This document shows, in pieces, positions 1,345 to 27,852 of a stretch of 32,739 nt of DNA. Source of the DNA: a virus. The notes beneath the pieces were generated by a model. The model was not told the origin of the DNA. It saw only the letters and a program-made list of their open reading frames with translations, and made no database searches. Within the stretch, counting starts at the first letter, position 1, and the number at the start of each line of letters is the position of its first letter. The stretch spans positions 1-32,739 of the IMG/VR virus record IMGVR_UViG_3300047494_000005, one strand, 5' to 3'. A program made the position numbers and the translations under genes.

Positions 1345-1581
1345 GCGCCCGATGAGACCTCCCAGCACAAAGCGTTCACCGAATGGGTGGCGGAGGAAGC
1401 AGGTACGTCTCACGGGCGCGAGTTCTGTCAGGTGTTCGACGTCATGGTTGACCCGAACCCGTTCGGCGATAGTGAGTGGCGTCAGACCAGAGAGCGGTGG
1501 GCGAAAATAGATAAAGATCGGGAGCGGTGGGAGAAGCTCACCCCTGAAGAGCAGCGCGCCGTGACCGAGGCGTTCCGATGA
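1339..1581 (+). CDS. hypothetical 80-residue charged protein
   Basis: This small, highly charged protein has a C-terminal helix rich in Glu, Arg and Lys (RERWAKIDKDRERWEKLTPE) and three Trp residues in that half. There is no membrane segment. It starts at ATG 1339 behind a strong AAGGAG site. Its last codons overlap the large terminase start by 4 nt (ATGA at 1578-1581), so the two are probably translationally coupled. It could be a terminase-associated factor, but that rests only on the coupling. The family is not recognised. Confidence 0.65.
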   Translation: MTAPDETSQHKAFTEWVAEEAGTSHGREFCQVFDVMVDPNPFGDSEWRQTRERWAKIDKDRERWEKLTPEEQRAVTEAFR

Positions 1582-3164
1582 GCGCTGCCGTCCCGCAGAT
1601 AAGCTACCGTCCGCCGCCGACGATCAAGGCGTTCATCAAATACCACGAGATGAGCAGCCTGTTCTACGCCTGGATCATCGGCCCGGTCGGTAGCGGCAAG
1701 ACCACAGGCATCTTCTTCAAGTTGGTCGTGATGGCCAAGCTCCAGGCCCCGAGCCCCGATGGGATCAGGCGCACGAGAGCAGTGGTCATCCGCAACACGA
1801 TGCCGCAACTGAAGGACACGACCCTGGTCTCCTGGGGCTATTGGTTCAAAGACGGTCAGGCGGGGCATTGGAACGCCACGGACAAAATCTTCACGCTTCG
1901 CTTCGATGACGTCGAGTGCATCGTGCTCTTTCGGCCCCTGGACACGCCCGACGACGTTAACCGTGTCCTATCGTTGGAGATCAACTTCGCTGTCCTGGAT
2001 GAGTTTGTGGAAATCCCGAAAGCGATCATTGATGCTTTGTCTGCTCGTTTGGGACGATACAAACAACCAGATGGGACACCAGTGACCATCTGGGGCATGT
2101 GGGGATCGTCCAACACCAGCACCGAAGACAACTGGTGGTTTGACTATCTGCACTCCGTCGACGTGATGAAGTACGGCGAGACGGATGAAATGTTCCGCTC
2201 GCGGCACATGATCATGACCAACCAGCCGATGCCGGCGATCAACACCATGTACTTCCATCAGCCCGGCGGCATGACGGACGAGGCCGAGAACCTGGAGAAC
2301 CTGCCGCCCTACAAGGCCGGTGATCACAGCTACTACTTGAACCTGAAGAAGGGTGGAAGGAGCCTCGCGTGGCAGAAGCAGTTCATCGACGCCGAGTGGG
2401 GCTATTCCGCAAGCGGGCAGGCCGTGACGCCCTTCTTTCGCCCTCACCACGTCTCATCGACGCGGCTGAAATTCAATCCTGGTTTGCAACTGATCATTGG
2501 GTTGGACCCCGGTATCACCGGCTCCGCGATGATCTTGATGCAGGAGGACTACTCGGGCCGGATCAACGTGCTGCGCGAGATCGTCCAGCGCGGCTACGGA
2601 GCGGAGCGGATGATCCGCGAGCGCCTGCTCCCGGTGCTGAAGAACGAGTTCCCGACTGTCGAGATGGACCGCATCCTGGTTGCTGCCGATCCGGCGTCAA
2701 TCAACCGGGCGCAGACCGACGAACGAACAGTGATCCAGGTCTTTGCGCAATACTTCAATGTCTGGAAGGAAACAAACAACCGCTTCCCGCTGCGGCTGGG
2801 GGCCTACGAGCGCTACCTCAACATGACGGCCGAGGGTGACTTCGCCTTCCAGATCGACCCTGTCGGGTGCCCGTCCCTGGTGCGTGGGCTCAAGGGCGGC
2901 TGGCGCTACGCGAGCGAGGTCAAGAAGGAAATCCTCAAGGGCGCGGAGCCGGATAAGAACGAATACAGCCACGCCTGCGACGCGCTTGGCTACGGCCTGC
3001 GCTACTGCCATGTGGGGATGATGCGGTTCGAGAAGTACGGGCGCAAGGGCGGCCTTGCGATCCCTGGGGCTGGCATGGGCTACGTCAACACACCCTGGGG
3101 CGTGCAGAACGTCCAGCGGCTGCGCGGCCCCGGCACGAGCGCGCCGAAGTACCACTACACCTGA
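1578..3164 (+). CDS. terL: terminase large subunit (packaging ATPase/nuclease)
   Basis: This 528-residue protein powers DNA translocation into the procapsid and cuts the concatemer. The N-terminal ATPase shows a Walker A site, GPVGSGKT (residues 35-42), and a Walker B, FAVLDE (137-142), with the catalytic Glu at 142. The C-terminal RNase H-like nuclease begins at LIIGLDPGITGS. Asp310, Asp371 (VAADPAS) and Asp468 (HACDALGYG) are spaced as metal-binding acids. Length is normal for the family. ATG 1578 has GAGG 7 nt upstream and overlaps the preceding stop. The portal follows after 19 nt. The family is certain. The packaging mode (pac or cos) cannot be read from the sequence. Confidence 0.93.
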   Translation: MSAAVPQISYRPPPTIKAFIKYHEMSSLFYAWIIGPVGSGKTTGIFFKLVVMAKLQAPSPDGIRRTRAVVIRNTMPQLKDTTLVSWGYWFKDGQAGHWNATDKIFTLRFDDVECIVLFRPLDTPDDVNRVLSLEINFAVLDEFVEIPKAIIDALSARLGRYKQPDGTPVTIWGMWGSSNTSTEDNWWFDYLHSVDVMKYGETDEMFRSRHMIMTNQPMPAINTMYFHQPGGMTDEAENLENLPPYKAGDHSYYLNLKKGGRSLAWQKQFIDAEWGYSASGQAVTPFFRPHHVSSTRLKFNPGLQLIIGLDPGITGSAMILMQEDYSGRINVLREIVQRGYGAERMIRERLLPVLKNEFPTVEMDRILVAADPASINRAQTDERTVIQVFAQYFNVWKETNNRFPLRLGAYERYLNMTAEGDFAFQIDPVGCPSLVRGLKGGWRYASEVKKEILKGAEPDKNEYSHACDALGYGLRYCHVGMMRFEKYGRKGGLAIPGAGMGYVNTPWGVQNVQRLRGPGTSAPKYHYT

Positions 3165-3183: not shown

Positions 3184-5460
3184 ATGGCGGGCGCGAGCGC
3201 ATATGCGATAGCTGAGATTTCCCCACCGGACGTGCCGGTGCCGGGGAAGAACTCGCCTGTCACCAACCTCAAGCCGGTCACCATGACCCAGCTTGGGGCC
3301 AACCTCAACCATCTGTTTACGCAGTTCAAGAGCGACCGCCAGATGGCGGAGCTTCGTTGGTTGAGGAACCAGCGCCAATATCTCGGCGTCTACGACCCCG
3401 ACATCGAGAAGGAGCTTCAACCCAACCGATCGCGCGCTTACCCGAAGATTACGCGGACCAAGTGCATCAGTGTCCTGGCCCGGCTGATGAACCTGATGTT
3501 CCAGGGCAACGATCGTAACTGGACACTGACGGCGTCCTCGTGGCCGAACATGACGATCGACGACGTCAAGAAGGCGATCCAGGACGCGCAGGCGGCGGAT
3601 CAGAAGAACGGCGGGCAGGCGCAGCAGGTGGACCGCGCCTATGTGATTGCGGCGGTCAAGAAGGCGGCGCAGAAGCGGGCGCAGTGCGTCATCGACTTGA
3701 TTGATGAGCAGTTCAACGAACTCGGTGGAGACCAGACCGAGGACTACGTGACGCTCAACCGGCGCGCGCTCAAGAGCGGCATCCAGTACGGGCTCGGCGT
3801 GCTGCGCGGGCCGTTCGCGCGCAAGACGAAGATGCTGCAATGGAGCGACCACCCGCAGTACCCGCTGCCCAAGCAGATCACCGCCTACAAGCCCTACTTC
3901 GAGTTCCTGCCGGTGTGGGACTTCTACCCCGACATGAGCGCCAAGCGGCTGCGCGACGCGGAGATGGACGGCTACTTCATCCGCAAGGTGCTCAGCCGCC
4001 AGGGGCTGCGGCGGTTGGCTGATCGTGAAGACTTCATGGGTGATCAGATCAGGAAGTACCTGAGCATGCACCCGATGGGCAACTATCGGCCGCAATGGTA
4101 CGAGAGCGAACTGCGCGCGATGGGCGTCAAGGCGAACGTCAACGAGCAGAAGATCGAGAGCACCAAATACGAAATCCTGATCTACCACGGCCCCGTCACG
4201 GGTCAGTTCCTGACGTTGGCGGGCGAGCAGATCGACGGCGACAAGCTGGCCGACGACATCGACGCCGAGGTGTGGATGGTTGACGGCATCCCGATCAAGG
4301 CGTGTATGAACCCTTGGCGGATGATGGACGTGCAGATGAGCATGATCCACACCTTCCTCTATGACGAGGACGACACGAGCCCGATCGGCTTCGGTTTACC
4401 GGTGGCGATCCGCGACAGCCAGATGGGCATCAGCGCGGCCACGCGGATGATGATGGACAATGCGTCGGTGGTCTGCGGTCCGAACATCGAAGTCAACACT
4501 GATCTAATGCGGCCCGATCAGGACGTGTCGGCGATCACGGCCTACAAGGTCTGGTATCGGGAGGGCACCGATCAGTCTGCGCAGTGGCAGGCCGTCCGCA
4601 ACATCCAGATCGACGCGCATATCGACAGCCTTCTGAAGGTGATCGAGTTCTACCTGAAGATCGTCGACATGGAGACGTTCGTCGGCCCGGCCACCGGTGG
4701 CGACATGTCCAAGGGTCCGAGCGAGCCCTTCCGCACGGCGAGCGGGGCTGCGCAGTTGCGCGGCGACGCGGCGCTGCCGTTCAAGGACATGGTGCGGGCG
4801 TTCGACACCTTCACCACTTCGATCGTGAACAGTGTTCTGATCTTCAACCAGAAGTTCAACCCGACACTGATCCCTGACGCCGACTACAACATCGTCGCCC
4901 GCGGCGCGTCGTCGCTGATGATGAAGGAAGTGCGCGGCATGCACGCCGACAACCTCGCCACCACGCTGACGCCGGACGAGAAGATTTACTACGACATGCG
5001 CAAGATGGCTCAGATCAGGGCTCAGTCGCGCGACATGGACGACATCCTGGTGGATGATGATGAGGCAGGGCGTCGTGAGGCTCAGCAGGCTCAGACCGCC
5101 GCGCAGCAGCAGCAGCAACAGGACCGCATGTTCGAGGCGAACCTGCGCGAGGCGCTGGCCAACGCCTTCAAGTCGATCACTCAGGGGCAGAAGAACACTG
5201 CTGCTGGTGATGCACAGTCGGTAGACAGTGCTCTCCAACTACTCGAAGTGGGCGTGAATAATGGACTTATCGCAAACAACCAGGGCCAGGGTGCTGGAGC
5301 TAACCCAGGCGCTGGTGCAGGAGGCCAAGCTCCAGAACCCGGTGATGACCAACTTGCTTCGTCTGCTGACGATCAAATTGGAAGTGGCCAAGGAAGCCCT
5401 GGTGACCAAGGCCAACCCCCAAACTTTTCCGGCGCTCCAGGGGGAGGCGCTGGCCCTTAA
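3184..5460 (+). CDS. portal protein (podovirus type)
   Basis: This 758-residue protein forms the dodecameric DNA gate at the head vertex and docks the terminase during packaging. The position right after TerL, the length and a helical, Arg/Trp/Tyr-rich N-terminal region (RWLRNQRQYLGVYDPDIEKE, residues about 58-77) match large podovirus portals. A Gln-run helix (AQQAQTAAQQQQQQ, around residues 630-645) is followed by a helical segment and a disordered Gly/Pro/Gln-rich tail (about 695-758). The start is ATG 3184 behind a perfect AGGAGG. The tail region is overlapped by another open frame (5261-5521), which may explain its low complexity. The portal call relies on synteny plus general pattern. 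I could not assign a specific sub-family. Confidence 0.85.
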   Translation: MAGASAYAIAEISPPDVPVPGKNSPVTNLKPVTMTQLGANLNHLFTQFKSDRQMAELRWLRNQRQYLGVYDPDIEKELQPNRSRAYPKITRTKCISVLARLMNLMFQGNDRNWTLTASSWPNMTIDDVKKAIQDAQAADQKNGGQAQQVDRAYVIAAVKKAAQKRAQCVIDLIDEQFNELGGDQTEDYVTLNRRALKSGIQYGLGVLRGPFARKTKMLQWSDHPQYPLPKQITAYKPYFEFLPVWDFYPDMSAKRLRDAEMDGYFIRKVLSRQGLRRLADREDFMGDQIRKYLSMHPMGNYRPQWYESELRAMGVKANVNEQKIESTKYEILIYHGPVTGQFLTLAGEQIDGDKLADDIDAEVWMVDGIPIKACMNPWRMMDVQMSMIHTFLYDEDDTSPIGFGLPVAIRDSQMGISAATRMMMDNASVVCGPNIEVNTDLMRPDQDVSAITAYKVWYREGTDQSAQWQAVRNIQIDAHIDSLLKVIEFYLKIVDMETFVGPATGGDMSKGPSEPFRTASGAAQLRGDAALPFKDMVRAFDTFTTSIVNSVLIFNQKFNPTLIPDADYNIVARGASSLMMKEVRGMHADNLATTLTPDEKIYYDMRKMAQIRAQSRDMDDILVDDDEAGRREAQQAQTAAQQQQQQDRMFEANLREALANAFKSITQGQKNTAAGDAQSVDSALQLLEVGVNNGLIANNQGQGAGANPGAGAGGQAPEPGDDQLASSADDQIGSGQGSPGDQGQPPNFSGAPGGGAGP

Positions 5461-6510: not shown

Positions 6511-7569
6511 ATGGCCAATATCACTTCCTACGGTGACATTTCACCCGCGGTGGCGGCCTACGCTGTGGTGCGGATGTTGACCCGCGCCATGCCGTACCTC
6601 CATCTGGAGAAGTTCGGACAGACTTACACCCTGCCGACGAACTCCACTCAGACCGCCAAGTTCCGTCGCTACTTCCTGACCGGCGCGTCCGGTTCGGCCG
6701 GGCCGGACAACGGCATCAACGGCGGTTCGCCGTTCTACATCCCACTGGCGACGACGCCGTTGGTTGAAGGTGTGACGCCGCAGGGTTCGACCCTGGCGAA
6801 CGTCGACTACACGGTCACGCTCCAGCAGTATGGCGACTACGTCACCATCACGGACGTGATCGAGGACACCCACACCGACCCCGTGCTGTCTCAGGCGACC
6901 GACGTCCTCGGCGAGCAGGCGGCCGTCACTGTCGAGACCTTGCGCTTCAATGTGCTCAAGGCCGGCACCAACGTCTGGTACGCCGCCAATGTCGGCGGCC
7001 GGTCGAGCGTCATCACGGCGGTGAGCCTCACCGACCAGCGTCGCGTCACCACCGGTCTCAATCGCCAGAACGCGAAAAAGATCACCACTGTTGTCGCGTC
7101 CAACCCGGACTTCAACACCAAGTCGGTTGAAGCGGCCTACATGGCCGTCTGTCACCCCGATCTGGAAAGCGACATCCGCAACATGACCGGGTTCATCCCG
7201 GTCGCCAGCTACGGCCCGCACACCTCCCCTTTCGAGGGCGAGATCGGCTCGGTCGAGCAGGTGCGCTACCTGACCTCCACGGTCATTGCGCCGTTCGCGG
7301 ACGCGGGCGCGGCGATCACCGCCGGCAACTTCCGGTCGACCTCGGGCACCCTGGCCGACGTCTACCCGATCCTCTACTTCGCGCGCGACGCCTATGGCAT
7401 CGTGCCCCTGAAGGGGAAGTCGTCGATGACGCCGATGGTGGTCAATCCGAAGCCCGCCGCCGGCGACCCGCTGGCTCAGCGCGGCACCGTTGGTTGGAAG
7501 CTGTGGAACGGCACGGTCATCCTTCAGGACGCCTTCATGGCGCGCCTTGAGGTTGCCTGCACCGCCTAA
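6511..7569 (+). CDS. major capsid protein, N4-gp56 family
   Basis: This 352-residue coat protein is expected to adopt the HK97 fold and build the icosahedral shell. The pattern of the N4-gp56 family is visible in order: an N-terminal YGDISPAVAAYAVVRMLTRA helix, LEKFGQTYTLPTNSTQTAKFRRY, then LVEGVTPQ, then the QQYGDYVTITDVIEDTHTDP stretch that precedes a long helix, and a C-terminal KLWNGTVILQDAFMARLEV strand. Length is normal. The start is ATG 6511, with GAGGGA upstream at a slightly long spacing and CACTGA between them. No protease gene lies next to it, so prohead maturation may be absent or handled elsewhere. Confidence 0.93.
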   Translation: MANITSYGDISPAVAAYAVVRMLTRAMPYLHLEKFGQTYTLPTNSTQTAKFRRYFLTGASGSAGPDNGINGGSPFYIPLATTPLVEGVTPQGSTLANVDYTVTLQQYGDYVTITDVIEDTHTDPVLSQATDVLGEQAAVTVETLRFNVLKAGTNVWYAANVGGRSSVITAVSLTDQRRVTTGLNRQNAKKITTVVASNPDFNTKSVEAAYMAVCHPDLESDIRNMTGFIPVASYGPHTSPFEGEIGSVEQVRYLTSTVIAPFADAGAAITAGNFRSTSGTLADVYPILYFARDAYGIVPLKGKSSMTPMVVNPKPAAGDPLAQRGTVGWKLWNGTVILQDAFMARLEVACTA

Positions 7570-8483: not shown

Positions 8484-9275
8484 ATGCGCGTCGGCGACCT
8501 GCTCAAGGAACTCCGCTACAACAAGTTGCGGGACCGCTCCAATCAGGTCGCCGGCACGGCCAGCGATCAACTATGGGACGACTGCACGCTGGTGCAGTAC
8601 ATTGATCAGGCGCAGCGTCGGTTCTGTCGTGAGACCGAACTTATGCGCGACTTCACGACGCCCGAGGCGACATCCATCCAGACGGTGGTTGGTCAGTGCA
8701 TGTACGCTCTGCATCCGTCAGTGATCGGCGTAATGAGCGTGCGTAACCCCGGTGACAACACTGATCTGGCGCGCACCGGTCACTCAGCGCTCAAGACCTA
8801 CTTCACCCCCGACCGATATTTCTTCGACCCCAGTTACCTGTCTGAGCTTGCTCCAGGCAAGCCTCTGGCATGGGCGACGGATGAGGGCCTGATCGCAGAC
8901 GCCAAGGGGCAGGGCGGCGTCATGGCGCTGCGCGTCTACCCCGAGACCGGCGCGGGCTTCGCGTCAGTGCTGCGCCTGCGGGTTATCCGCGAACCTCTCC
9001 GCCGGCTCTCCATCGACGACTTGGATGCCTATCTGGAAATCCCGGAGACCTACCAGATCGACATCCTTGATTGGGCGGCCTACCTCGCGCTGTCCGGCCC
9101 CGATCTCGACGTTGCCGGCAACGTCGATCAGATCGTTCGGGCGCGCAGCCTCAAGGCCGACTTCGACGACACTTGTCAACGTGTCGTCAAGCAACTGAAG
9201 CGGAAGGTCTTCGCCCCGGCGCAGTTCGGCTTCGGCCGTAACGGCTGGTCCTATTCGAGTGATTGGAACGTCTGA
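8484..9275 (+). CDS. head-to-tail adaptor protein
   Basis: This 263-residue protein begins with MRVGDLLKELRYNKLRD, then QLWDDCTLVQYIDQAQRRFC (residues about 30-49). That is the Trp-Asp-...-Leu-...-Tyr-Ile-...-Ala-Gln-Arg pattern of podovirus adaptor proteins, which bind under the portal ring. The rest is mixed alpha/beta with an IPETYQIDILDWAAYLAL helix and a C-terminal Lys/Arg-rich helix. ATG 8484 directly follows the previous TAA, with GAGG about 9 nt upstream. Position between small head proteins and the virion protein cluster fits. Its likely partners are the portal above and the nozzle candidate encoded at 26198-27316 below. Confidence 0.7.
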   Translation: MRVGDLLKELRYNKLRDRSNQVAGTASDQLWDDCTLVQYIDQAQRRFCRETELMRDFTTPEATSIQTVVGQCMYALHPSVIGVMSVRNPGDNTDLARTGHSALKTYFTPDRYFFDPSYLSELAPGKPLAWATDEGLIADAKGQGGVMALRVYPETGAGFASVLRLRVIREPLRRLSIDDLDAYLEIPETYQIDILDWAAYLALSGPDLDVAGNVDQIVRARSLKADFDDTCQRVVKQLKRKVFAPAQFGFGRNGWSYSSDWNV

Positions 9276-10243
9276 TGGCCCCTCAAATCATCAGTGTTAA
9301 CCCCAACGCCCCGCCGGCCCCGGTCACGCCTGCCTCGCAGCCGGGCTCCGGTGGGCCGCCGTCCGCTGCGCTCACGCAGGCTCCGGTGCCGCTCGCGCAA
9401 GACCTCCAGGGTCGCGCCGCGGCGGCTGGCTTCGGTGGTCAGATGCCGACGTTCAGCGCCGCAATGCAGACGGACCCCGCGCTCACCGAGCAGCAGACCG
9501 GGGACTTGTCCAACCACTCCGGTTTCTATCGGATGATGAACACGCCGATCGCGGGTCAGGGGCCGGACGAGTACAGCACCAAGCTGGCCACCGGCCCGTC
9601 GCCGCTCGACTACATGGCCAATTTTTTCGGTGGTAACAAGCAGGGCGACGCGCTGCTGGAGAAGAAGGCCAACCTCGCGCGCAGCTTCGCCGATCCCGCG
9701 GTGCGTCAGTTGGTGACATCGAGCAAGCCGCTTTACGACAGCGTGATGGCGAACCCCGAGCAGATGTTGCCGGTTCTGCAATCGGCAGTGTCGATCGGGA
9801 AGAACGCGCCCACGGCGACGGCGAACGGGAAAGCTGTGGACGATCCGGGCAGGCTTCAGCAGTTGAGCCAGATGACCGGCGAGCATCCCGACCATGTCCA
9901 CCTGTTCGCTGAGCCGCACAAATACAGCGAAGACGAGTTCGTGCAGGCGGCGTCGGGGCTGTCGTGGAACCAAGCGGCCAAGCTGTTCGGCATGCAGCAT
10001 TATCTGTCGCCGGATCAGCAGGCGTTCGGTCAACTGATGGGCGGCCTCCGCTCGCAGGCCGATCAGGCGGGCCAGCTTTACCAGCAGCTTGTCCAGAGTG
10101 GCCAGCCTCAGGGTAAGATCGACGCGGCCAAGGCGCAGTGGGACGCCGCGCGGGCGAAAATCCCCGATGTCCTGATGAAGAAGGGCCTTGGCCAGATGGG
10201 CATGTATCCCTCGATGTATCAGGCCCCCGCGGGCGTGGAGTAA
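9275..10243 (+). CDS. hypothetical virion-associated protein (322 residues)
   Basis: ATG 9275 overlaps the adaptor stop by 1 nt and is preferred over a TTG 12 nt upstream. The N-terminal ~60 residues are Pro/Ala/Gly-rich. The middle is helical (DALLEKKANLARSFADPAVR, then PLYDSVMANPEQMLPVLQSA). The C-terminal part has Gln/Ala-rich amphipathic helices (RSQADQAGQLYQQLVQS) and ends near MGMYPSMYQAP. There is no membrane segment. It lies immediately before the giant virion protein, where podoviruses often encode smaller internal or ejected proteins, so an internal virion role is plausible. No family is recognised. Confidence 0.6.
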   Translation: MAPQIISVNPNAPPAPVTPASQPGSGGPPSAALTQAPVPLAQDLQGRAAAAGFGGQMPTFSAAMQTDPALTEQQTGDLSNHSGFYRMMNTPIAGQGPDEYSTKLATGPSPLDYMANFFGGNKQGDALLEKKANLARSFADPAVRQLVTSSKPLYDSVMANPEQMLPVLQSAVSIGKNAPTATANGKAVDDPGRLQQLSQMTGEHPDHVHLFAEPHKYSEDEFVQAASGLSWNQAAKLFGMQHYLSPDQQAFGQLMGGLRSQADQAGQLYQQLVQSGQPQGKIDAAKAQWDAARAKIPDVLMKKGLGQMGMYPSMYQAPAGVE

Positions 10244-10246
10244 CCG

Positions 10247-13200
10247 ATGGCGGACTTCAACGACTTCGCCTCCTACTTCGGGCCGACGCCGGACGCTCAA
10301 CCGCAGATCAACCAACCAAACCCCGCCTTCTCGCCGAGCGGAACCGGCAACTGGTTCACGGCGGGCCTGGGGTCGGGCTTCCATCAGGCGCTCAGCGAAG
10401 TCGGCAGCGCGGGCGAGGCGGGCGCCCGCGCCTTCGGTGCGGACAGTCTGGCCAACAGCGCCAGGAACTTCGCCGACGCGCAGCGCGCGAGCGCGGCCAC
10501 ATATGCGCGTCCCGATCTGGAGAGCGGATCGTGGTACGATCCCCGCGTGCTCGCCTACCGGCTGACGCAGAGCGTTCCGACTTTCGCCGGTGCGCTCGCC
10601 GGTGGCGCGCTGGCGGCGGCTGCGGCTCCTGAAGTCGGGGCTGCTGGTTTGGTTGCTGGCGGCTTGGGCGCTGAAGAGGCCGCGGCTGCGGCGCTGGCCG
10701 GCACCGCGGCGCGTAAGAGCGCGTTGGGTCTCGTAGGCTCGACACTGGCCATGTATCCGTCGAGCGTCGGCGGCAACGTCCAGCGCAACGAGGACTATGA
10801 GGGCGACCTGTCGCAGACCAGCGCTCAGCATGCGCTTGAACTCGGCGTGCCCGAGGCGCTGGTCCAGGGCGTTGGACCTCATTGGTTGGAGAAGGGTGTC
10901 CTCTCGGGCTTCGGCGGCGGCCTCGCGGGCACGGCGGCCAAGGCGTTCGGCATCCAGGCGGGGGCGGGGGCGGCGACCGAGTGGGCCATGCAGGCGATGG
11001 GCGATCCCAATCGGTCGCTCGCCGATCGTGCCAACGACATCGTCACGGCGGGTCTCAGCGGCGGTCTGCTCGGCGGCGTCACCGCGGGCATCCTGCACCC
11101 CTTCAGCCCGGCCCATACGATCGCCAAGACGCCTCCTATGGAGGTGCCGACCGAAGGCGCGCCCAACTCCCTCCAGAACGTCGTGGACGCGACCCTTCAG
11201 CCTCCGCAGCCAGGGCGGCCGATGCCGGCCGGGCCGGGGCAGATCATCGCCGATCGCATCGCTCAGATCGCTCAGCGGCCCACTGCCGCCGATCAGAACA
11301 TGCAGCTTCCACCTGCGCCCCCGCCGTCGACTTTGCCGCAGACGAGCCCGCTGGACCAGTTGGCGGCGATCCGCGCGGGCGCGCCGATCCAGATGCCTCC
11401 GCCAGCCGATGAGGCGGCTCGGCTCCAGCAGGCGCAACTTGACGCCGCCAGGGCGGCTCGGCCGAGCACACGCGCTCCAGGCACCCTCGCTGACCGGCTG
11501 GCGGCCGTCCAGGCGCGTCCAGGCGGCGCGGACCAGAACATCCCCGCTCCCCCGGTCGCGCCGGGTACGGAGCCCTATCGGCCGTTCGCTGGCCCTCCGG
11601 GCGCGTCTGACGGGCAGAAGCTGCTGGCCCCTCCGCTGCTGCGTCTGCCTGCGCCGACCCCGACCCCCGACGCTCCGCAGCCGTTTGATTGGGCGGCGAC
11701 GCGCAAGCAGCTTCAGCAGGTGAAGGGCTACTCCCCCGCGCTGCGAGGTCCGTTCGACAATGTCGACGACCTGAAGAACACTGTCTACCAGAACGTCATC
11801 AAGCGCGTGCAGGCGGGCGACGACGATCTGAAGCCTTGGCTCAGCAACGCGGCTGCGCACCTCGGCATCCTGGATGAGGGCACGGGTGAGTTTACGCCCG
11901 AGTTCAAGGCGCGCGCCGCACAGGACATGAGTGAGCAACTGCCGCCCGGCGTCACGTCTGCCGACAACAACGCCGCGCCGATCCCAGGCCCCGTCACGCC
12001 GACCGAAGCCCCCGCGCAGCCGGGCACTCCTGGTTGGAAGCCGGCCGATCCCGTCGATCGTGGCGCGGTGCCCGAAGCGCATCAGAAAAGGTGGGACGCC
12101 CTTGATCAGCAGCGCCGTACTCTGCTTGGCGATAATCTGTCTGACTTCCGTATTCAGGAGCTTCTGGACAAGACGACAGCACTACAGGATCGCCTCCTTA
12201 GCGTTACGAAGTCTGGCGACAACTCTTGGCGAAACGTCGATCGCGCCACGAAGGAGATACAGGCCCAAGTCACGGCGCTCCACACTCAAGCGGCGGTTGA
12301 CCCGCAGCCTCCCGCGACGGAGAAGACTGCGCCTGCGAACGGTCCTCAACCGAGCCCGGCGGCAAGCGCTTTTGTCGGCCGAATGAAGAAGGCTGTAGCT
12401 GACCCCGCGTTCCAACCGCTTGCGGATCAGTTCCAGAACCAACTGGCTGGCATGACGGCGGAGGCGACAGGTGGTCAAACAAAGGAAGCCCAAGCCAAGG
12501 CTAAGCGGAAAGGAAAGGTCGCTCAGGCTCCCGCGCCCGAAGCTCCCGCTGCTGCCGTCGAAGACGCATCCACGCTCAAGGAGCGGGACGCCGCTCAAGC
12601 CATCGCCAGCGGAGAAGCCCCCGCATCCTTGACGCCGGAAGAGGCTGCGGCTGCGCAGCCCGATCCCCGATACCCGGCAGGCACGACGCTGCCCCCGCGT
12701 GAGGACGCGATCGAGCGCGACGGCCGGCTGTGGGACTATCGCCAGAACGCCACGCCGCCGGACATCGAGGCGCGGGCGCAGCAGGCCGAGAAGGCGGCGC
12801 TCGATCCCCGACTGGTGGGTTCCCAGCCCCAGGACGTGCCCACGGCGGCGCGCCGGGACTTCGCTACCGCCGAAGACCGCGCCAGGGCGGCCAGGGCGGC
12901 CGTCGAGGCCAAGAGGCCCACCACGGAGGCTCAGCGGCAGGCCCAGCGTGAAGCGTATGCTGCGGCGCGCGGGATCGACCCCGAGCAGGCTCGCGCGACT
13001 ACGCGCGGGGCCAAGGCGGATCAGCACACGATCGAGCGCGTTAACCCACGGTTGGTCAGTCCGGCCGAGGACGAGGCCGAGATCGCCGCGCGCGCCCCGA
13101 GCCCTACGGACGAGCGTCGCGCCGCCAACAATGCGGCGTTGCCGCCCGCGGTCGATCCGAGCCTGCTCAGCGGCTTCGAGCGCACCGGCCGACGCGCCCA

Positions 13201-16200
13201 GGCGGACGCTGTGCGCGAAGCCAAGAACGACACGCTGCGAGCCAAACTGTCGATGATCGAGAGCGGCAAGCGACCGGTCGTGCCGGTGCCGACCAAGGTG
13301 ATCGACCAACTCAATCGCGCCAAGGCGGCGCTGGATGCCTTGCGCACCCAGGGCGCGATCGTCCCTCGCCACGAAGACTTCGAGGGCAAGGACACCCAAT
13401 TTCAACAGCGCTTGTCTCAGCACGCGGATCAACTGAATTTGGTTGATCGCGCTGTCAAGCTCGGGGGCATGGAAGGTCTGCGGGAGGTTCCGCGCGACTT
13501 CTTCGGCACTGATCTCTACGATGAGATGTCGGGCCATGTCACTCCACAGACTGAGCGAAACCTGCTGGCTCACGCTACGGCTGAGACACAGCTACAGGAC
13601 GCGGCTGCGGCGGCGCGTGGAGAGCGCCCGCTCGTCAGCTATTCAGAGCCCCCGACCCAACATGACGTCGACCTCCAGCATATCGTCAACCAGACTGGCG
13701 ACATGAAGTCGGTCCTCGGCTATCTGCGCGAGAACGGATCGAACTCGACGGTCAAGATGCTCGCTCACAAGCTACTGACCGGTGGCGCGGGCGGCACGGT
13801 CGCGATGAGCGATCGGGCGCAGGTGCGCGAAGGCGCGGTGATGAAGGGCATGCACTTCGCCGACGCCAACCACACCGAAGTGTATGACGGCTCGACGATG
13901 GAGCACACGCTGTTGCACGAGGCGGCGCACTCCGCGATGCAGCGGGCGATCGACAAGCGCGCACCGGGCACGGACGCGATCAACTCGCTGTACGAAAGCC
14001 TGAAGAAGGCTGGCGGTGACGACTACGGGTTGACCAACCTGCACGAGTTCGTCTCTGAGGCGTTCTCGAACCCGCAGTTCCAGCAGTACCTGAACTCGAT
14101 CCGCGTTACGCCGGACATGAGCATGTGGCAGCGCTTCAAGAACGGCGTCGCCCGCGTGCTCGGGCTCGGCGACAAGTCGCGCTCGCAGACGGCGTTGGAT
14201 TATGTGATGGATCACGCCACCCGGATGATGGGTGAGAACGTCCGCGAAGCGAACACTGATTACCGTGTTCAGGCGCGCCGGGGCGGTCAACTGTTCAGCG
14301 AGGCGTCGACCCAACTCGGCAATGCGATGGACCGCGCGCTGTGGAAGGAAGTCGGCGGTCTCGTCAAGGATAGCGTGTCCAAGCTCGGCATGAAGGCTCG
14401 CGAGGGCGCGTTCGCGTTCGAGACTGGAGACATGCTCAAATGGCACCTCCAGGAGCATGTGCCCTCGGCCGTGCCGTTCGTTGACACGCAGAACCACCGC
14501 ACCGTGCGGACGGACACGCTCGCCAAGAACCTCGTGCGCGCCTACGATCAGGTCCATAAGCTGGCGGAGCCGTCGCGCGAGGCGTGGGCTCGGCTGGCGG
14601 CGCACACTGCCCAACGGATCAACGGCTTCAAGACCTGGGAAGAACACACTTGGTTGAAGGACCATCCGCAGGTCGATGCCTTGCACGAGGAATGGCAGGA
14701 GGCGAACCGCGACGCCAACGTGATCCGTAACGATCCCGCGGCCATGAAGGCGTGGCAGGACAGCATCAACGCCAACGAGGGCGCGAAGTACCTGCGCAAC
14801 CTGCATCTGCTCAACGACTACAAGGCTCGTGAGTGGGAGGGTGAGAACTGGTCCGGCTACGAGACGGACCCGATCCGCGACTATGAGGGGCGCACCGACC
14901 TTCAGGACAATCCAGCGGCTGCGCGCGCCTGGGGCAAGGCTGAACAGGAGAAGCGGCTGGCGGGTCTCGCCAAGAAGGTCAACGATCTCGACACGCTCTA
15001 CAACTCTCAGCACCAGACTTTGGTTGACGACGCGAAGTTGCCCGGCCACATGCAGATGTCGGCGGCGCAGTTGGCGAAGTTGAACGAGGACATCAAGACG
15101 ACCCGCACCAACCGGGACGCGGCGTCGAGCCTTGTCCGCGATCTCACGACGCTGGAGAAGAGCAACGAGCAGGTGCCCTACTTCCATATCGGCCGCGGCA
15201 AGGGCGATCACTTCGTCAGCGCTCACGTCGCGATGGACGGCAACGTGCCGCGCGACAGCGCGATCCGGGCGATCAGCGCCGCGCTATCGCAGAAGGGCTT
15301 CAAAGACCTCGCGATCATGCGCGGCATGGAGAACCCCTCGATCTACATGCGCGTCGAGAGCCAAGCGCAGCGCGCTGAACTGGCGGCGATCCTGAAGCGG
15401 ATGCAAGCGGAGGGTCATATCGACGCCGCCAAGCCGGTGGCCGATGGATTGGCTTCGGACACGAACATTTACCACTCGATCGGCCCGCAGTGGATGCGTC
15501 AGATCATCGAGGGCATCAAGAGCACGCCGCCGGACTACCCGGTCAACACGACCAACGCGCAGCGTGAGGCTTTGAACACGGCTCATGAGCAGATGATCCG
15601 CGAGCAGGTGCGCGCCCTGATGGACATGCTGCCGGACAGTTCGCTGACCAAGGCGTACCAGAAGCGCGAGGGTGTCCAGGGCTTCAGCACTGATATGCTG
15701 AACAGCTACAAGGCGAACGCCGTCAGCGCCAGCCGCGGCTTGTCGAATGTCAGCCTCGCGCGCGAACTTGGTCAGTTGTCGCTCAAGATGAAAGAAGAAC
15801 TCGATAGCGTCAACATCAAGGACTTGTCCCCCAACACGAAGACGACGGTTGCTCAGGCGCTCGGGGAGTTGGTGCTGCGCAACAAGCTCTATCAGCAGCA
15901 CGTCCCCTCGACGTTCATGGACGGCGTGCGGCGCACGGTGCATGCGGTTCAGATCGGCGCGTCGCCGGCCTATTTCATGACCTTGATGAGCCAAATCCCC
16001 TCGTTGACGCTGCCCGAGCTTGCCAAGACGCACGGCTACGTGGGCTCGGCGAGCGCGATGGCGCGGGCCACGAACGACGCCTTCAAGGTGATGAAGGCTG
16101 TCTGGTCGGACGGCAAGGGCGGCTTCCACATGGGTGACGACGCGATCACCTTCGGGATGCGTCGTGACGCCCTGGAGCGCGCCGGCTTCAAGCCCGACAT

Positions 16201-17551
16201 GGTCGACTTCCTGATGAACCTCGCCAGCCGCGGGGCGTTCAACCAGGGAGCTTATACCGAGGCCATGACGGGCCATCAGGTCGACAGTGCCTATGGCGCG
16301 CTGCTCCAGAAGGCCAGCGTGCTCGGCCGCTACAGCGAGCAGTTCCCGCGCGTGCTGACGGCCATCGCATCGAAAATCCTGCACGAGGACCAGCAGGGCA
16401 AGGTGCCGAATGTGGCCGGCGGGCAGAAGATGACCCGCGAAGAGTTCGCCTACCGGAACGTGATGAACTCGCAGTTTAATTGGAACCCGGAACTGAACGC
16501 GCGCGAGACCACGCGCTCGGGCAAGTTCGGCGCCTACTCGCCACTGATCAACCAGTTCATGGGCTTCCAAATCCGCATGACGGAGAAGCTGTATCGTGAG
16601 GTCGCCACCGGCTTCGCCAACGGCAACTGGAACAGCGAAGACGCGAAGGCGTCACGCACTTGGCTCTACGGTCACGCGGCTGTCGTCACGGCGCTGGCCG
16701 GCACGCTTGGCCTGCCGATGGTTGGCGTTGCGGCTTCGGTCTACGATCGTCTGGCTGATTGGTTGGGCGACACCGACGACCATGACATCACCGCGAGCTA
16801 CCGCTCGTTCCTGGCGCACAGCTTCGGCAAGGAGTACGGCGAGGCCATCGCGCGCGGCGCGCCGCGGCTGGCGGGTCTGGACTTCGATCACCTCGGCGAG
16901 GGCACGATCGCGCCGGGCTCGAAGATGATCATGTTCGCCACAGAGAAGCGTAAACTGGAGGATGCCGAGAAGGACTGGCTGCGCAACATGGCCGGCTCCA
17001 GCATGGGCTTCCTTGCCAACACGGCCACGGGCGCACGCGACCTGATGAACGGCGACTACCTGGATGGGCTCACCAAGTTTTCCCCTGAAATTTTGAAGGG
17101 CGGCGTGGAGGCTTTCCGGCTCGGCAAATACGGCTTCGTAGATAAGAACGGTTCCAAGCTTCCAATCACCGCCAGTGCGAGCGACGTGATGATGAAGGCG
17201 CTCGGCATCGACCCGGCCAAAGAAGCCGAGTACGACGAAGAAAAGAGGGTGGCCACTGGTCTGCAAACTATGCGCCAGATGCGATCTCAGAACATTACCC
17301 GGCATCTGATGCTGGCGACAAACAGAGGGGACGAGGGCAACTTCCAGTCGTGGCAGAGCGAGGCGATGAAGTTCGCGATGGATCACCCTGGGATGGGCAA
17401 CCCCCTATCGGATTTCGGGCGTGCGATGGCGCTGCACTCTCGAAACGCTGCCGTGGCCCAAGGGTTCGGGACGCCCATTGGCGTGCAGCCTCGCGACCGC
17501 GTTGGTCAGGAGATGACCAACTTCGGCAATCTTAGGAACGGAGAAAACTGA
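10247..17551 (+). CDS. giant polyvalent virion protein with metallopeptidase domain
   Basis: At 2434 residues this occupies about 22% of the window. The N-terminus (about 98-300) is rich in Ala/Gly hydrophobic stretches that could insert in membranes. Residues about 300-1100 are largely Pro/Ala/Gln-rich, linker-like and charged. A zinc metallopeptidase-like domain (about 1140-1340) carries HEAAH (His1224, Glu1225, His1228) and a downstream LHEFVSEAF (Glu1267 and Glu1271), one Glu being a probable third metal ligand. Residues about 1640-1880 include VPYFHIGRGKG and MLPDSSLTKAYQKREGVQGF. These resemble conserved segments of large polyvalent protein-associated domains. Residues about 2078-2120 (FNWNPELNARETTRSGKFG...) and a hydrophobic stretch at about 2150-2175 end the conserved part. 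Such proteins are known from virions and conjugative elements and are thought to be ejected with DNA. The exact substrate is unknown. ATG 10247 has GGAG 6 nt upstream. Confidence 0.8.
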   Translation: MADFNDFASYFGPTPDAQPQINQPNPAFSPSGTGNWFTAGLGSGFHQALSEVGSAGEAGARAFGADSLANSARNFADAQRASAATYARPDLESGSWYDPRVLAYRLTQSVPTFAGALAGGALAAAAAPEVGAAGLVAGGLGAEEAAAAALAGTAARKSALGLVGSTLAMYPSSVGGNVQRNEDYEGDLSQTSAQHALELGVPEALVQGVGPHWLEKGVLSGFGGGLAGTAAKAFGIQAGAGAATEWAMQAMGDPNRSLADRANDIVTAGLSGGLLGGVTAGILHPFSPAHTIAKTPPMEVPTEGAPNSLQNVVDATLQPPQPGRPMPAGPGQIIADRIAQIAQRPTAADQNMQLPPAPPPSTLPQTSPLDQLAAIRAGAPIQMPPPADEAARLQQAQLDAARAARPSTRAPGTLADRLAAVQARPGGADQNIPAPPVAPGTEPYRPFAGPPGASDGQKLLAPPLLRLPAPTPTPDAPQPFDWAATRKQLQQVKGYSPALRGPFDNVDDLKNTVYQNVIKRVQAGDDDLKPWLSNAAAHLGILDEGTGEFTPEFKARAAQDMSEQLPPGVTSADNNAAPIPGPVTPTEAPAQPGTPGWKPADPVDRGAVPEAHQKRWDALDQQRRTLLGDNLSDFRIQELLDKTTALQDRLLSVTKSGDNSWRNVDRATKEIQAQVTALHTQAAVDPQPPATEKTAPANGPQPSPAASAFVGRMKKAVADPAFQPLADQFQNQLAGMTAEATGGQTKEAQAKAKRKGKVAQAPAPEAPAAAVEDASTLKERDAAQAIASGEAPASLTPEEAAAAQPDPRYPAGTTLPPREDAIERDGRLWDYRQNATPPDIEARAQQAEKAALDPRLVGSQPQDVPTAARRDFATAEDRARAARAAVEAKRPTTEAQRQAQREAYAAARGIDPEQARATTRGAKADQHTIERVNPRLVSPAEDEAEIAARAPSPTDERRAANNAALPPAVDPSLLSGFERTGRRAQADAVREAKNDTLRAKLSMIESGKRPVVPVPTKVIDQLNRAKAALDALRTQGAIVPRHEDFEGKDTQFQQRLSQHADQLNLVDRAVKLGGMEGLREVPRDFFGTDLYDEMSGHVTPQTERNLLAHATAETQLQDAAAAARGERPLVSYSEPPTQHDVDLQHIVNQTGDMKSVLGYLRENGSNSTVKMLAHKLLTGGAGGTVAMSDRAQVREGAVMKGMHFADANHTEVYDGSTMEHTLLHEAAHSAMQRAIDKRAPGTDAINSLYESLKKAGGDDYGLTNLHEFVSEAFSNPQFQQYLNSIRVTPDMSMWQRFKNGVARVLGLGDKSRSQTALDYVMDHATRMMGENVREANTDYRVQARRGGQLFSEASTQLGNAMDRALWKEVGGLVKDSVSKLGMKAREGAFAFETGDMLKWHLQEHVPSAVPFVDTQNHRTVRTDTLAKNLVRAYDQVHKLAEPSREAWARLAAHTAQRINGFKTWEEHTWLKDHPQVDALHEEWQEANRDANVIRNDPAAMKAWQDSINANEGAKYLRNLHLLNDYKAREWEGENWSGYETDPIRDYEGRTDLQDNPAAARAWGKAEQEKRLAGLAKKVNDLDTLYNSQHQTLVDDAKLPGHMQMSAAQLAKLNEDIKTTRTNRDAASSLVRDLTTLEKSNEQVPYFHIGRGKGDHFVSAHVAMDGNVPRDSAIRAISAALSQKGFKDLAIMRGMENPSIYMRVESQAQRAELAAILKRMQAEGHIDAAKPVADGLASDTNIYHSIGPQWMRQIIEGIKSTPPDYPVNTTNAQREALNTAHEQMIREQVRALMDMLPDSSLTKAYQKREGVQGFSTDMLNSYKANAVSASRGLSNVSLARELGQLSLKMKEELDSVNIKDLSPNTKTTVAQALGELVLRNKLYQQHVPSTFMDGVRRTVHAVQIGASPAYFMTLMSQIPSLTLPELAKTHGYVGSASAMARATNDAFKVMKAVWSDGKGGFHMGDDAITFGMRRDALERAGFKPDMVDFLMNLASRGAFNQGAYTEAMTGHQVDSAYGALLQKASVLGRYSEQFPRVLTAIASKILHEDQQGKVPNVAGGQKMTREEFAYRNVMNSQFNWNPELNARETTRSGKFGAYSPLINQFMGFQIRMTEKLYREVATGFANGNWNSEDAKASRTWLYGHAAVVTALAGTLGLPMVGVAASVYDRLADWLGDTDDHDITASYRSFLAHSFGKEYGEAIARGAPRLAGLDFDHLGEGTIAPGSKMIMFATEKRKLEDAEKDWLRNMAGSSMGFLANTATGARDLMNGDYLDGLTKFSPEILKGGVEAFRLGKYGFVDKNGSKLPITASASDVMMKALGIDPAKEAEYDEEKRVATGLQTMRQMRSQNITRHLMLATNRGDEGNFQSWQSEAMKFAMDHPGMGNPLSDFGRAMALHSRNAAVAQGFGTPIGVQPRDRVGQEMTNFGNLRNGEN

Positions 17552-17979
17552 TGGCCAAGGGTTCGACTTTCGATAACGACCTGCTCAAGCTGATCTTCAA
17601 TGCGACCGCCATTGCGAACATGGCGGACAACGCGGCGTCGGCTCCACTGACCAACCTCTACGTCTCGCTGCACACGGCGGACCCCGGCGCGGGCGGCAAC
17701 CAGACGACCAACGAGGCGAACTACACCAGCTACGCCCGCGTGGCCGTGGCGCGCTCGGGATCGGGCTGGACGGTCACCGGCAACAGCGTGGTGCCGGCGG
17801 CGACGATCAGCTTCCCGCAATGCACCGGTGGGACGAACACGATCACGAACTTCGCGATCGGCACGGCCAATACCGGAACGGGCAAAATCCTATATACAGG
17901 GACGGTCTCGCCCTCGATCGCTGTGGCCAGCGGCGTCACGCCGCAGTTCACGACGGCTTCGAGCGTCACCGAGAGCTAA
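17551..17979 (+). CDS. small tail-type protein of a widespread phage family (142 residues)
   Basis: The core LTNLYVSLHTADPGAGGNQT, then TSYARVAVARSGSGWTVTGN is a distinctive pattern shared by many small phage proteins annotated as tail-fibre or minor tail proteins, though their exact role is unclear. The remainder is Thr/Ser/Gly-rich beta sequence. The start ATG overlaps the TGA of the giant gene by 1 nt, with GGAG upstream. No catalytic motif or membrane segment is seen. Its position between the giant protein and the lysis pair does not narrow the role. A virion surface or tail accessory protein is the best guess. Confidence 0.6.
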   Translation: MAKGSTFDNDLLKLIFNATAIANMADNAASAPLTNLYVSLHTADPGAGGNQTTNEANYTSYARVAVARSGSGWTVTGNSVVPAATISFPQCTGGTNTITNFAIGTANTGTGKILYTGTVSPSIAVASGVTPQFTTASSVTES

Positions 17980-21812: not shown

Positions 21813-22834
21813 TGGGGACGATCTGGTACGACAGCTTCGCGCCATATGTGAACGCGGCCGATCTCGCGATGAATTACACGTCGAGCAACACCGGTACGAT
21901 CCTCCCCACCGGCGGTCCGTTCGGCGATGGCGCATGGGAGATGGCCGGCGGCAACCTCGGCATCTGGCGCACGATGGCGACGCCGGTGCAGGAGCTATGG
22001 GAGAGCTTCCGCTTCAACGTCTACAACTCCGTCGCCGGGGACAACGTCCTCGCGGCTGTCGGCGTCGGCGGCGCGGGCGGCCAGAACGGTTGCGAGATGT
22101 CTGTATCGCTCGATGCAGCCGGCGGCGTGTTCAAGGTCTGGAGCGGTCTGCGCGCCACGCTGCTCGGCAGCGCTACGGTCACGCTCTCGGGCGGGTGGCA
22201 CTGGATTGATATTCGCTACAAGCACGACGCGAGCGCGGGCGTGATGGAGGTCTGGCTGGACGAGACGCGCATCATCAACGTGACGGGGGCGGACACCGCA
22301 CCACTGACGAATAGCGCTCTCACCTATTTCAGCCTCGGCGACCCCAACCAATCCTCGACCCAGCGCGCGACAGTGGCGGGGGTCATCGTGACGGACGCCA
22401 CTACGGGCCGTGTCGGCGACTGCCGCATCGAGGCGATGCCACCCACCAGTGATGCGAGCCCCAACCAAGGCACTCCGTCGACAGGCACCAACCACTACGC
22501 TGTGGTCGATGAGCCTCAGTACAACACGTCTGACTACATCACGATGCCGAACACGTCCGGCGACAAGGAGGTCTTCGGTCACGGACCGATGGTCTCGACC
22601 CCCGCCGTGGTCATCAGTGTCAAGGTGCTGACGATCAGCCAGAAGTCCGACGCCGGCTCGTTCGTGCTGGAGCCGCTGGTCATCTCGAACGGGACGGAGG
22701 GCGATGGGCCGAGCCAGCAGCTTCAGGTCTCGTGGGGGACGCAGAACGCGCTGTTCGACGTCGACCCTCATACCAGCGCGGCCTGGACCTATGCTAACGT
22801 GAACGCTTCGGACATCGGCTTTAAGGTTCCCTGA
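21812..22834 (+). CDS. lectin-like virion surface protein (340 residues)
   Basis: The start is set at ATG 21812, which overlaps the previous TGA by 1 nt and has GGAGG 6 nt upstream. A GTG three bases earlier is possible. Residues about 1-200 have the strand pattern of a concanavalin-like lectin/LamG sandwich (GWHWIDIRYKHDASAGVMEV, then WLDETRIINVTG). Residues about 200-250 (GRVGDCRIEAMPPTSDASPN, then HYAVVDEPQYNTSDYITM) match a conserved segment that follows such domains in phage structural proteins. The remaining ~90 residues form another beta domain. It probably binds host-surface glycans or decorates the tail. No hydrolase residues are recognised. Confidence 0.65.
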   Translation: MGTIWYDSFAPYVNAADLAMNYTSSNTGTILPTGGPFGDGAWEMAGGNLGIWRTMATPVQELWESFRFNVYNSVAGDNVLAAVGVGGAGGQNGCEMSVSLDAAGGVFKVWSGLRATLLGSATVTLSGGWHWIDIRYKHDASAGVMEVWLDETRIINVTGADTAPLTNSALTYFSLGDPNQSSTQRATVAGVIVTDATTGRVGDCRIEAMPPTSDASPNQGTPSTGTNHYAVVDEPQYNTSDYITMPNTSGDKEVFGHGPMVSTPAVVISVKVLTISQKSDAGSFVLEPLVISNGTEGDGPSQQLQVSWGTQNALFDVDPHTSAAWTYANVNASDIGFKVP

Positions 22835-27316: not shown

Positions 27317-27852
27317 TGGATGAATTTCGCTACGACGAAGACAAGGGCCTGTTCGTGCCCAAGGCCAAGCACTTCGGCATCTTCACGTTCGAGCATTTCC
27401 GCAAAGGCGAGAAGATCGACGAGTGGCAGGCCGACAACACGGCCACCAACGAGGGCCTGATCTGGCTGCTCAACCTCGGCTTCACCGCCACGGTCGCCAA
27501 TCAGAACTGGTACTGCGGCCTGTTCTCGAACAACTACACCCCGCTGGCGACGGACACTGCGTCCTCGATCGTCGGCAACGCGGGCGAGTTCACCGGCTAC
27601 ACCGGCGGAGCGCGCCCGGCCTTCACGCCCGCCGCAGCGGCTCAGCCGACGCCGAGCCTGAACAACAACAACACCAAGGCGAGCTTCACGTTCAACGCCT
27701 CGGGGACACTGATCGGCTCGTTCATCATTTCGAGCGCGACGCCGAACTCCAATACCGGCATCCTCTATGCCGCGGCTCAGTTCCCGTCGAGCAAGAACGT
27801 GTCGAACACTGACAACATACTGATGTCCTACGCCTTGGGTCTGACGCCCTAA
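27316..27852 (+). CDS. tail accessory protein (178 residues)
   Basis: ATG 27316 overlaps the nozzle stop by 1 nt, with GGAG upstream. Residues about 30-75 (KIDEWQADNTATNEGLIWLL, then ANQNWYCGLFSNNYTP) resemble small podovirus proteins with an N-x-G-L-x-x-L-L-N helix followed by a Trp-Tyr-containing strand. These are often encoded near nozzle-type genes. The C-terminal half is Thr/Ser/Asn-rich beta sequence. No membrane segment is seen. It is coupled to both neighbours by 1-nt overlaps and is most likely a structural tail component. Its precise role is unknown. Confidence 0.6.
   Translation: MDEFRYDEDKGLFVPKAKHFGIFTFEHFRKGEKIDEWQADNTATNEGLIWLLNLGFTATVANQNWYCGLFSNNYTPLATDTASSIVGNAGEFTGYTGGARPAFTPAAAAQPTPSLNNNNTKASFTFNASGTLIGSFIISSATPNSNTGILYAAAQFPSSKNVSNTDNILMSYALGLTP

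What the first reader, a model, noticed from the sequence alone, without database searches (positions are those of the whole stretch)
10247..17551. 2434-residue polyvalent virion protein with HEAAH metallopeptidase
The protein joins hydrophobic Ala/Gly-rich segments, long disordered linkers, a metallopeptidase-like site (His1224, Glu1225, His1228, plus Glu1267 or Glu1271) and C-terminal regions resembling large polyvalent protein-associated domains. Such a protein is a candidate for ejection into the host, where a protease could act on host defences or on the ejected complex itself. The domain order here may be new.
Basis: partly seen in the sequence, partly recalled or inferred. Interest (0 to 1): 0.6.

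Follow-up and report, generated by a model that had tools for sequence, protein, structure and literature searches.

The report
Giant podovirus ejection protein with protease
A short-tailed bacterial virus carries a very large protein, probably packed in its head and pushed into the host cell ahead of the DNA, that holds a complete-looking zinc-protease active site; the kind is known, but this copy ties several separately described phage proteins together and its protease section is exchanged for unrelated ones in close relatives.

Summary
Window 10247-17551 encodes one intact 2434-aa protein among the head genes of an N4-capsid-type podovirus. It has four parts: an Ala/Gly-rich N-terminal region (1-320); a disordered-looking linker (321-1040); a zincin (about 1120-1345); and a mostly helical C-terminal region carrying the named PLxRFG/tail-700 domain (NF032893, 176 bits, cut-off 100). 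In 55 related zincins H1224, E1225, H1228 and E1267 never vary; E1267 is the likely third zinc ligand, E1271 second-shell. The predicted fold (pLDDT 89) matches the lethal factor/PPEP class of zincins, including the catalytic Tyr (Y1260). Its profile matches solved podophage ejection proteins (9SFN, E 5e-24; PhiM1 gp48, 4e-14) and the HExxH domain of N4 virion RNA polymerase. Relatives of both the zincin and the C-terminal region are virion proteins by mass spectrometry, so the ejection idea is well supported. The domain order is not new: Rhizobium phage RHph_TM29 and many IMG/VR phages have zincin plus tail-700. Less expected: among phages with 76-85% identical capsid proteins the zincin slot holds one of three HExxH/HExxxH modules with no detectable similarity to each other, or none. 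The substrate is unknown. New member of a known kind.

The parts
10247..17551 (+). Giant ejection-type protein, 2434 aa
   Evidence: intact ORF; homologues at the same place in relatives with 76-85% identical MCP
10247..11206 (+). N-terminal region, residues 1-320, Ala/Gly-rich, conserved
   Evidence: alignment A3 of 26 relatives, whatever their zincin type; composition
11039..11095 (+). Membrane-like Gly-rich segment, residues 265-283
   Evidence: Kyte-Doolittle peak 1.66; Gly columns nearly invariant
11207..13366 (+). Pro/Ala-rich linker, residues 321-1040, poorly conserved, 353-907 aa in relatives
13604..14281 (+). Zincin domain, residues 1120-1345
   Evidence: AlphaFold2 pLDDT 89.0, pTM 0.83; structure matches; profile matches
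13916..13930 (+). HEAAH, residues 1224-1228
   Evidence: H, E and H invariant in 55 sequences
14024..14026 (+). Tyr1260, matches the catalytic Tyr728 of the lethal factor class
   Evidence: 45 of 55 have Tyr exactly 7 residues before the ligand Glu; role of Tyr728 from PMC3496994
14045..14047 (+). Glu1267, probable third zinc ligand
   Evidence: 55 of 55; kept in the solved homologues
14057..14059 (+). Glu1271, probable second-shell residue
   Evidence: 53 of 55; not kept in the three solved ejection homologues
14282..17548 (+). Helical C-terminal region C2, residues 1346-2434
   Evidence: AlphaFold2 model of 1130-2329, pLDDT 85.7, pTM 0.77; alignments A2, A4, A5
15581..17389 (+). tail-700 / PLxRFG domain, residues 1779-2381
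   Evidence: NF032893, 175.9 bits against a curated cut-off of 100, E 1.3e-51
16676..16732 (+). Hydrophobic segment, residues 2144-2162
9275..10243 (+). Upstream ORF, about 322 aa, candidate second ejection protein (inference)
   Evidence: detected in 15 relatives at 26-44% identity, directly upstream of the giant gene
6511..7569 (+). Major capsid protein, N4-gp56 type
   Evidence: phrog_1357, E 1.8e-60; relative annotated N4-gp56 family
1578..3164 (+). Terminase large subunit
   Evidence: phrog_2, E 3.5e-22
3184..5460 (+). Portal-type protein
   Evidence: phrog_332 head-tail adaptor, E 6e-17; the position is annotated portal in relatives
8484..9275 (+). Head/connector structural protein
   Evidence: phrog_399, E 2.3e-10
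17551..17979 (+). Small head protein downstream
   Evidence: phrog_240, E 7.8e-17

Best explanation
This is the large ejection protein of a podovirus with an N4-type capsid, carrying a zincin of the lethal factor/PPEP class that is probably catalytically competent. Inferred working: the protein is stored in the capsid near the portal, held by its C-terminal tail-700 region. On infection it leaves before the DNA, unfolding through the tail. The Ala/Gly-rich N-terminal region enters the host inner membrane, and the flexible linker lets the zincin and C-terminal region pass through and refold. The zincin then cuts a protein: most likely a host protein, next most likely the linker of its own chain after delivery. 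Shown by computation: gene order, domain homologies, predicted zincin fold, conserved active site. Shown by others for relatives: presence in virions. Inferred: location of this protein, ejection, membrane insertion, catalysis and substrate.
For: Zincin profile matches PDB ejection/internal virion proteins: 9SFN 4.6e-24, PhiM1 gp48 (8VB2) 4.2e-14, 23SG gp10 1.5e-13. It matches the N4 vRNAP C-terminal half at the HExxH domain: hhalign E 7.7e-9, probability 96%, and phrog_2206 hits two relatives there. It matches phi14:2 g065, found in virions by MS/MS. The C-terminal region matches DarB-like giants: window by tblastn, profile against POI1126 E 8e-142. The DarB-like gp69 of phage JC1 is a virion protein with 51 unique peptides (PMC9144972). 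Gene order TerL-portal-scaffold-MCP-adaptor-ORF-giant is kept in relatives. Rollin, with the same gene order, has an N-terminus matching the N4 vRNAP profile (E 5e-11) joined to the same tail-700 region. Active site complete and conserved; fold matches lethal factor and PPEP. Swapping of zincins without detectable similarity at one slot fits a target that differs between hosts.
Against: No data on this virion. Zinc binding and proteolysis are untested. The C-terminal region shows no sequence similarity to N4 C2. The structural match to N4 gp50 is within the noise for helical models, and the entry residue range reported for the zincin match does not coincide with C1 by the paper's numbering. 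That JC1 gp69 shares the same C-terminal family is taken from its DarB-like label, not compared here. The N-terminal membrane role rests on composition. L015 has the same ends but no HExxH, so the protease is not always needed. Post-delivery self-cleavage is not excluded.
Confidence: 0.66

Rival explanations
1. The zincin is mainly a self-processing protease that cuts the giant chain, for instance in the Pro-rich linker, freeing the N-terminal membrane part from the zincin/C-terminal part after or during ejection.
For: Self-processing is proposed for zincins of such proteins, and P1 DdrB is processed (PMC5512222). PPEP-type zincins, which cut between prolines, are among the structural matches, and the linker holds 13 PP steps.
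Against: PP steps are no more frequent than the Pro content predicts (13 against 10.7). N4 vRNAP is packaged unprocessed and shows no degradation. The zincin stretch is resolved in the virion chain of PhiM1 gp48, although a nick would not show there. Zincins without detectable similarity replace each other.
Confidence: 0.2
2. The domain opens the peptidoglycan locally during ejection, doing the job of the T7 gp16 transglycosylase.
For: The PhiM1 authors assigned the equivalent stretch of gp48 (268-528) as endolysin/exotransglycosidase-like (PMC11440229). A tail-700 relative, Pavtok gp27, is annotated with a lytic transglycosylase.
Against: Profile and fold comparison put the domain with protein-cutting zincins, not glycosidases. 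The window has its own endolysin gene at 17828.
Confidence: 0.08
3. The zincin is a structural or inherited domain without a needed catalytic role.
For: Missing in L015; N4 C1 lacks the Tyr and the second Glu yet is kept.
Against: All four catalytic/ligand positions invariant in 55 sequences at 20% mean identity, plus Tyr in 45 and Glu1271 in 53. The slot is refilled by other HExxH/HExxxH modules.
Confidence: 0.12

Closest known systems
Giant protein EVB31_083 of Rhizobium phage RHph_TM29 (2328 aa)
   Same: zincin (HEATH, YGMTKPEEFVAEAFSNP) followed by tail-700 region; profile E 1.9e-29 and 3.9e-106; NF032893 above cut-off
   Different: N-terminal region not matched by our profile; 29-32% identity in the aligned parts; annotated hypothetical
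Tetrameric ejection protein gp48 of Pectobacterium phage PhiM1 (8VB2), and 9SFN, 23SG
   Same: homologous zincin with HExxH and the E1267 equivalent
   Different: 1239-1337 aa; the profile match does not reach the tail-700 part; E1271 not kept. The PhiM1 paper calls this stretch endolysin/exotransglycosidase-like and mentions no protease or zinc site
N4 virion RNA polymerase gp50
   Same: N-terminal membrane region, linker, HExxH domain C1, large helical C-terminal region in the same order; C1 homologous
   Different: no RNA polymerase domain here; C-terminal regions not detectably related; N4 lacks Tyr1260 and Glu1271
DarB-like / PLxRFG tail-700 giants (POI1126 gp30, Pavtok gp27; Bcep22-like phages such as JC1 by annotation)
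   Same: homologous C-terminal region in POI1126, Pavtok and others; JC1 gp69 in virions
   Different: 4500-5000 aa with methylase, helicase or transglycosylase parts
Lethal factor / PPEP class zincins
   Same: predicted fold (VIA Z 8.3 and 6.8) and active-site set HExxH, Tyr, Glu with the same Tyr-to-Glu spacing
   Different: about 14% identity; stand-alone secreted proteases or toxins, not virion proteins; no shared substrate implied
Polyvalent proteins with zincin MPTase domains (Iyer et al. 2017)
   Same: large late-gene phage protein with a zincin; HExxxH variants also described there
   Different: no Pfam LPD domain recognised in this protein

Membership tests
Zincin metallopeptidase, lethal factor/PPEP class | HExxH on a helix after a three-stranded sheet | tested here: met
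   AlphaFold2 model: strands 65-68, 82-85, 90-93, helix 99-117 holding 105-109
Zincin metallopeptidase, lethal factor/PPEP class | third ligand Glu on a following helix | tested here: met
   E1267 = model 148 in helix 146-155; 55/55
Zincin metallopeptidase, lethal factor/PPEP class | catalytic Tyr seven residues before the ligand Glu | tested here: met
   Y1260; 45/55; aligned to lethal factor YGRTNEAEF
Zincin metallopeptidase, lethal factor/PPEP class | overall fold | tested here: met
   Foldseek top 22 matches all lethal factor, best E 3.3e-3, probability 1.00; VIA Z 8.3, rmsd 6.7, 164 aligned; profile E 7.5e-5
Zincin metallopeptidase, lethal factor/PPEP class | binds zinc and cuts protein | not testable with these tools
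   needs purified protein
tail-700 / PLxRFG (NF032893) | score above curated cut-off | tested here: met
   175.9 against 100 bits
Podophage ejection protein | homology to a solved ejection or internal virion protein | tested here: met
   zincin part: 9SFN, 8VB2, 23SG
Podophage ejection protein | present in the virion and ejected | not testable with these tools
   virion presence shown only for relatives
N4-type virion RNA polymerase | RNA polymerase domain | tested here: not met
   no vRNAP profile hit in P0001 at E <= 1; residues 321-1040 are low-complexity linker
N4-type virion RNA polymerase | C1 zincin domain | tested here: met
   hhalign E 7.7e-9
N4-type virion RNA polymerase | C2 domain | tested here: inconclusive
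   no sequence match; VIA Z 7.4, rmsd 18.5, 299 aligned, within noise for helical models
Polyvalent protein (Iyer 2017) | two or more domains in one large late-gene phage protein | tested here: met
   zincin plus tail-700 beside packaging genes
Polyvalent protein (Iyer 2017) | recognised LPD domain (common, not required) | tested here: inconclusive
   none in the window protein; LPD39 in 1 of 23 relatives and in Rollin

The most novel reading that the evidence does not exclude
The protein is one of a family of podophage ejection chassis with a fixed membrane end and a fixed packaging end, in which the middle is an exchangeable effector slot; close relatives deliver different, unrelated proteases into the host in the way polymorphic toxins exchange their active ends. 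N4-type virion RNA polymerase and DarB-like anti-restriction giants would then be other fillings of a common delivery plan.
Probability: 0.3. Interest if true: 0.7.

Novelty: new member of a known kind. Interest (0 to 1): 0.42.

Why it matters
Podophages push very large proteins into cells before their DNA, and what the enzyme parts of these proteins do is mostly unknown. Here one profile joins the HExxH domain of the N4 polymerase, a domain of the solved PhiM1 ejectosome that was read as peptidoglycan-degrading, and the giant DarB-like proteins, and gives named residues to mutate. The exchange of different proteases at one slot offers a natural comparison for finding what they cut.

Tried and rejected
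Direct search of viral contigs with the whole protein found nothing, so relatives were reached through the capsid protein and the zincin. 'A giant RNA polymerase without its polymerase by descent': zincin homology holds, but C2 did not match N4 C2 by profile, and the whole-model PDB search gave nothing significant, so descent from vRNAP is not claimed. A search for single-subunit RNA polymerases elsewhere in 12 related records with PF00940 found none, but its controls also rang nowhere, so absence is not shown. A Pro-Pro cleavage signature in the linker was looked for and is not enriched. A scan of bacterial genomes with the zincin alignment could not be run for lack of conserved stretches; the capsid scan found an alphaproteobacterial MAG contig whose giant protein has the HExGH-type module, suggesting but not proving such hosts. 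Zincin types B and C have no convincing solved relative by sequence.

Full report
What is there. Window 10247-17551 is one open frame of 2434 aa, in a virus record of 32,739 bases. Around it lie terminase, portal-type, N4-gp56-type capsid, connector and head genes, so this is the structural block of a podovirus. The order terminase, portal, scaffold-like, capsid, two small ORFs, connector, ORF 9275, giant is kept in relatives with 76-85% identical capsid proteins, while the giant itself is only about 33% identical.

Anatomy. Alignment with relatives splits the protein in four. Residues 1-320 are Ala/Gly-rich and conserved whatever follows. Residues 321-1040 are Pro/Ala-rich, poorly conserved and between 353 and 907 aa long in relatives. 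About 1120-1345 is a zincin. Residues 1346-2434 are mostly helical in the model, which covers them to 2329 (pLDDT 85.7), and 1779-2381 score 176 bits with the NCBIfam tail-700/PLxRFG model, cut-off 100. Pfam recognises nothing in this protein.

The zincin. In 55 distinct homologues only H1224, E1225, H1228 and E1267 never change; Y1260 is present in 45 and E1271 in 53. The model of the domain alone has pLDDT 89 and pTM 0.83, with the helix-sheet-helix order of zincins, the motif on one helix and E1267 on the next but one. Its structure matches are lethal factor (Foldseek E 3.3e-3, VIA Z 8.3), Certhrax and Pro-Pro endopeptidases. The sequence profile alone finds lethal factor at 7.5e-5, with YGRTNEAEFFAEAF lined up with the family's YG-TN--EF-AEAF, in the window YGLTNLHEFVSEAF. 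In lethal factor Glu735 helps hold the zinc and Tyr728 takes part in catalysis (PMC3496994).

Link to ejection. The same profile finds three solved phage proteins: an internal virion protein (9SFN, 4.6e-24), the tetrameric ejection protein gp48 of PhiM1 (8VB2, 4.2e-14) and gp10 of 23SG (1.5e-13). The PhiM1 paper describes residues 268-528 of gp48 as endolysin/exotransglycosidase-like; by our profile that stretch is a zincin with HEAAH. Profile-profile comparison joins the zincin to the HExxH domain C1 of N4 virion RNA polymerase (E 7.7e-9), and the N4 polymerase family model hits two relatives of the giant at this place. The protein g065 of phi14:2, with the same zincin (1.1e-20), was found in virions by MS/MS. 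The C-terminal region is shared with DarB-like giants; JC1 gp69, a protein so labelled, was found in virions. Phage Rollin joins an N4-polymerase-like N-terminus to the tail-700 region in the same gene position.

What is not shown. C2 is not detectably related to N4 C2 by sequence; the structural match is weak and within the noise. The N4 rows of the structure search for the zincin give residue ranges that do not coincide with C1 by the paper's numbering, so the N4 link is rested on sequence profiles, which do place it at C1. Nothing here shows metal binding, cleavage, a substrate or virion location of this very protein.

The exchangeable slot. Across relatives the place between N-terminal region and C2 holds one of three modules: the HExxH ... 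EFxAEA type of the window, an HExGH ... EWFADN type, or an HExxGHxG type; L015 has none. Some labels were set by eye from the alignment where the automatic cut failed. The second and third types are not detectably related to the first by profile. On the capsid tree of 28 rows the four states need six changes, with three the least possible, so replacement has probably happened more than once; the states are still clustered and several forks are weakly supported.

Mechanism. From this and the published N4 and PhiM1 work, the best reading is an ejection protein whose N-terminal part enters the inner membrane and whose zincin is delivered with the helical C-terminal region. N4 vRNAP is packaged uncut and the PhiM1 domain is resolved inside the virion, which argues against cutting before packaging. 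Replacement by different proteases, and loss in one relative, suits a host-directed target better than a fixed structural step; this is inference, and self-cleavage after delivery remains the main rival.

Known or new. Zincins in such giants, including HExxxH forms, were described in 2017 (PMC5512222), and the domain order is present in cultured Rhizobium phages. The protein is a new member of a known kind. What adds interest is the residue-level placement in the lethal factor/PPEP class, the re-reading of the PhiM1 domain and the exchange at the slot.

Noticed in passing
window 22834-25452 (+): 873-aa protein rich in Ala, Ser, Thr and Gly with many repeats of the type TAxGxSTAxAxG and no PHROG match; 27852-28952 has a similar repetitive first half.
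   Followed up: no
PhiM1 gp48 (8VB2), residues about 337-512: Stretch published as endolysin/exotransglycosidase-like matches our zincin profile with HEAAH and the ligand Glu; the paper mentions no metallopeptidase.
   Followed up: partly
L161:15452-22003 (Pseudomonas phage Rollin): Giant protein annotated as an oligopeptide-binding protein OppA; it has an N4-polymerase-like N-terminus, an HEMGH motif, LPD39 and tail-700.
   Followed up: partly
L015:12160-18417: Relative with the same N- and C-terminal regions but no HE, HD or HQ pair, hence no HExxH, anywhere in the giant protein.
   Followed up: partly
L107, L108: Two zincin matches in tandem in one giant protein.
   Followed up: no
G002 and G011 (records of L069 and L094): Tyrosine-integrase family matches in related records, so some relatives may be temperate.
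   Followed up: no
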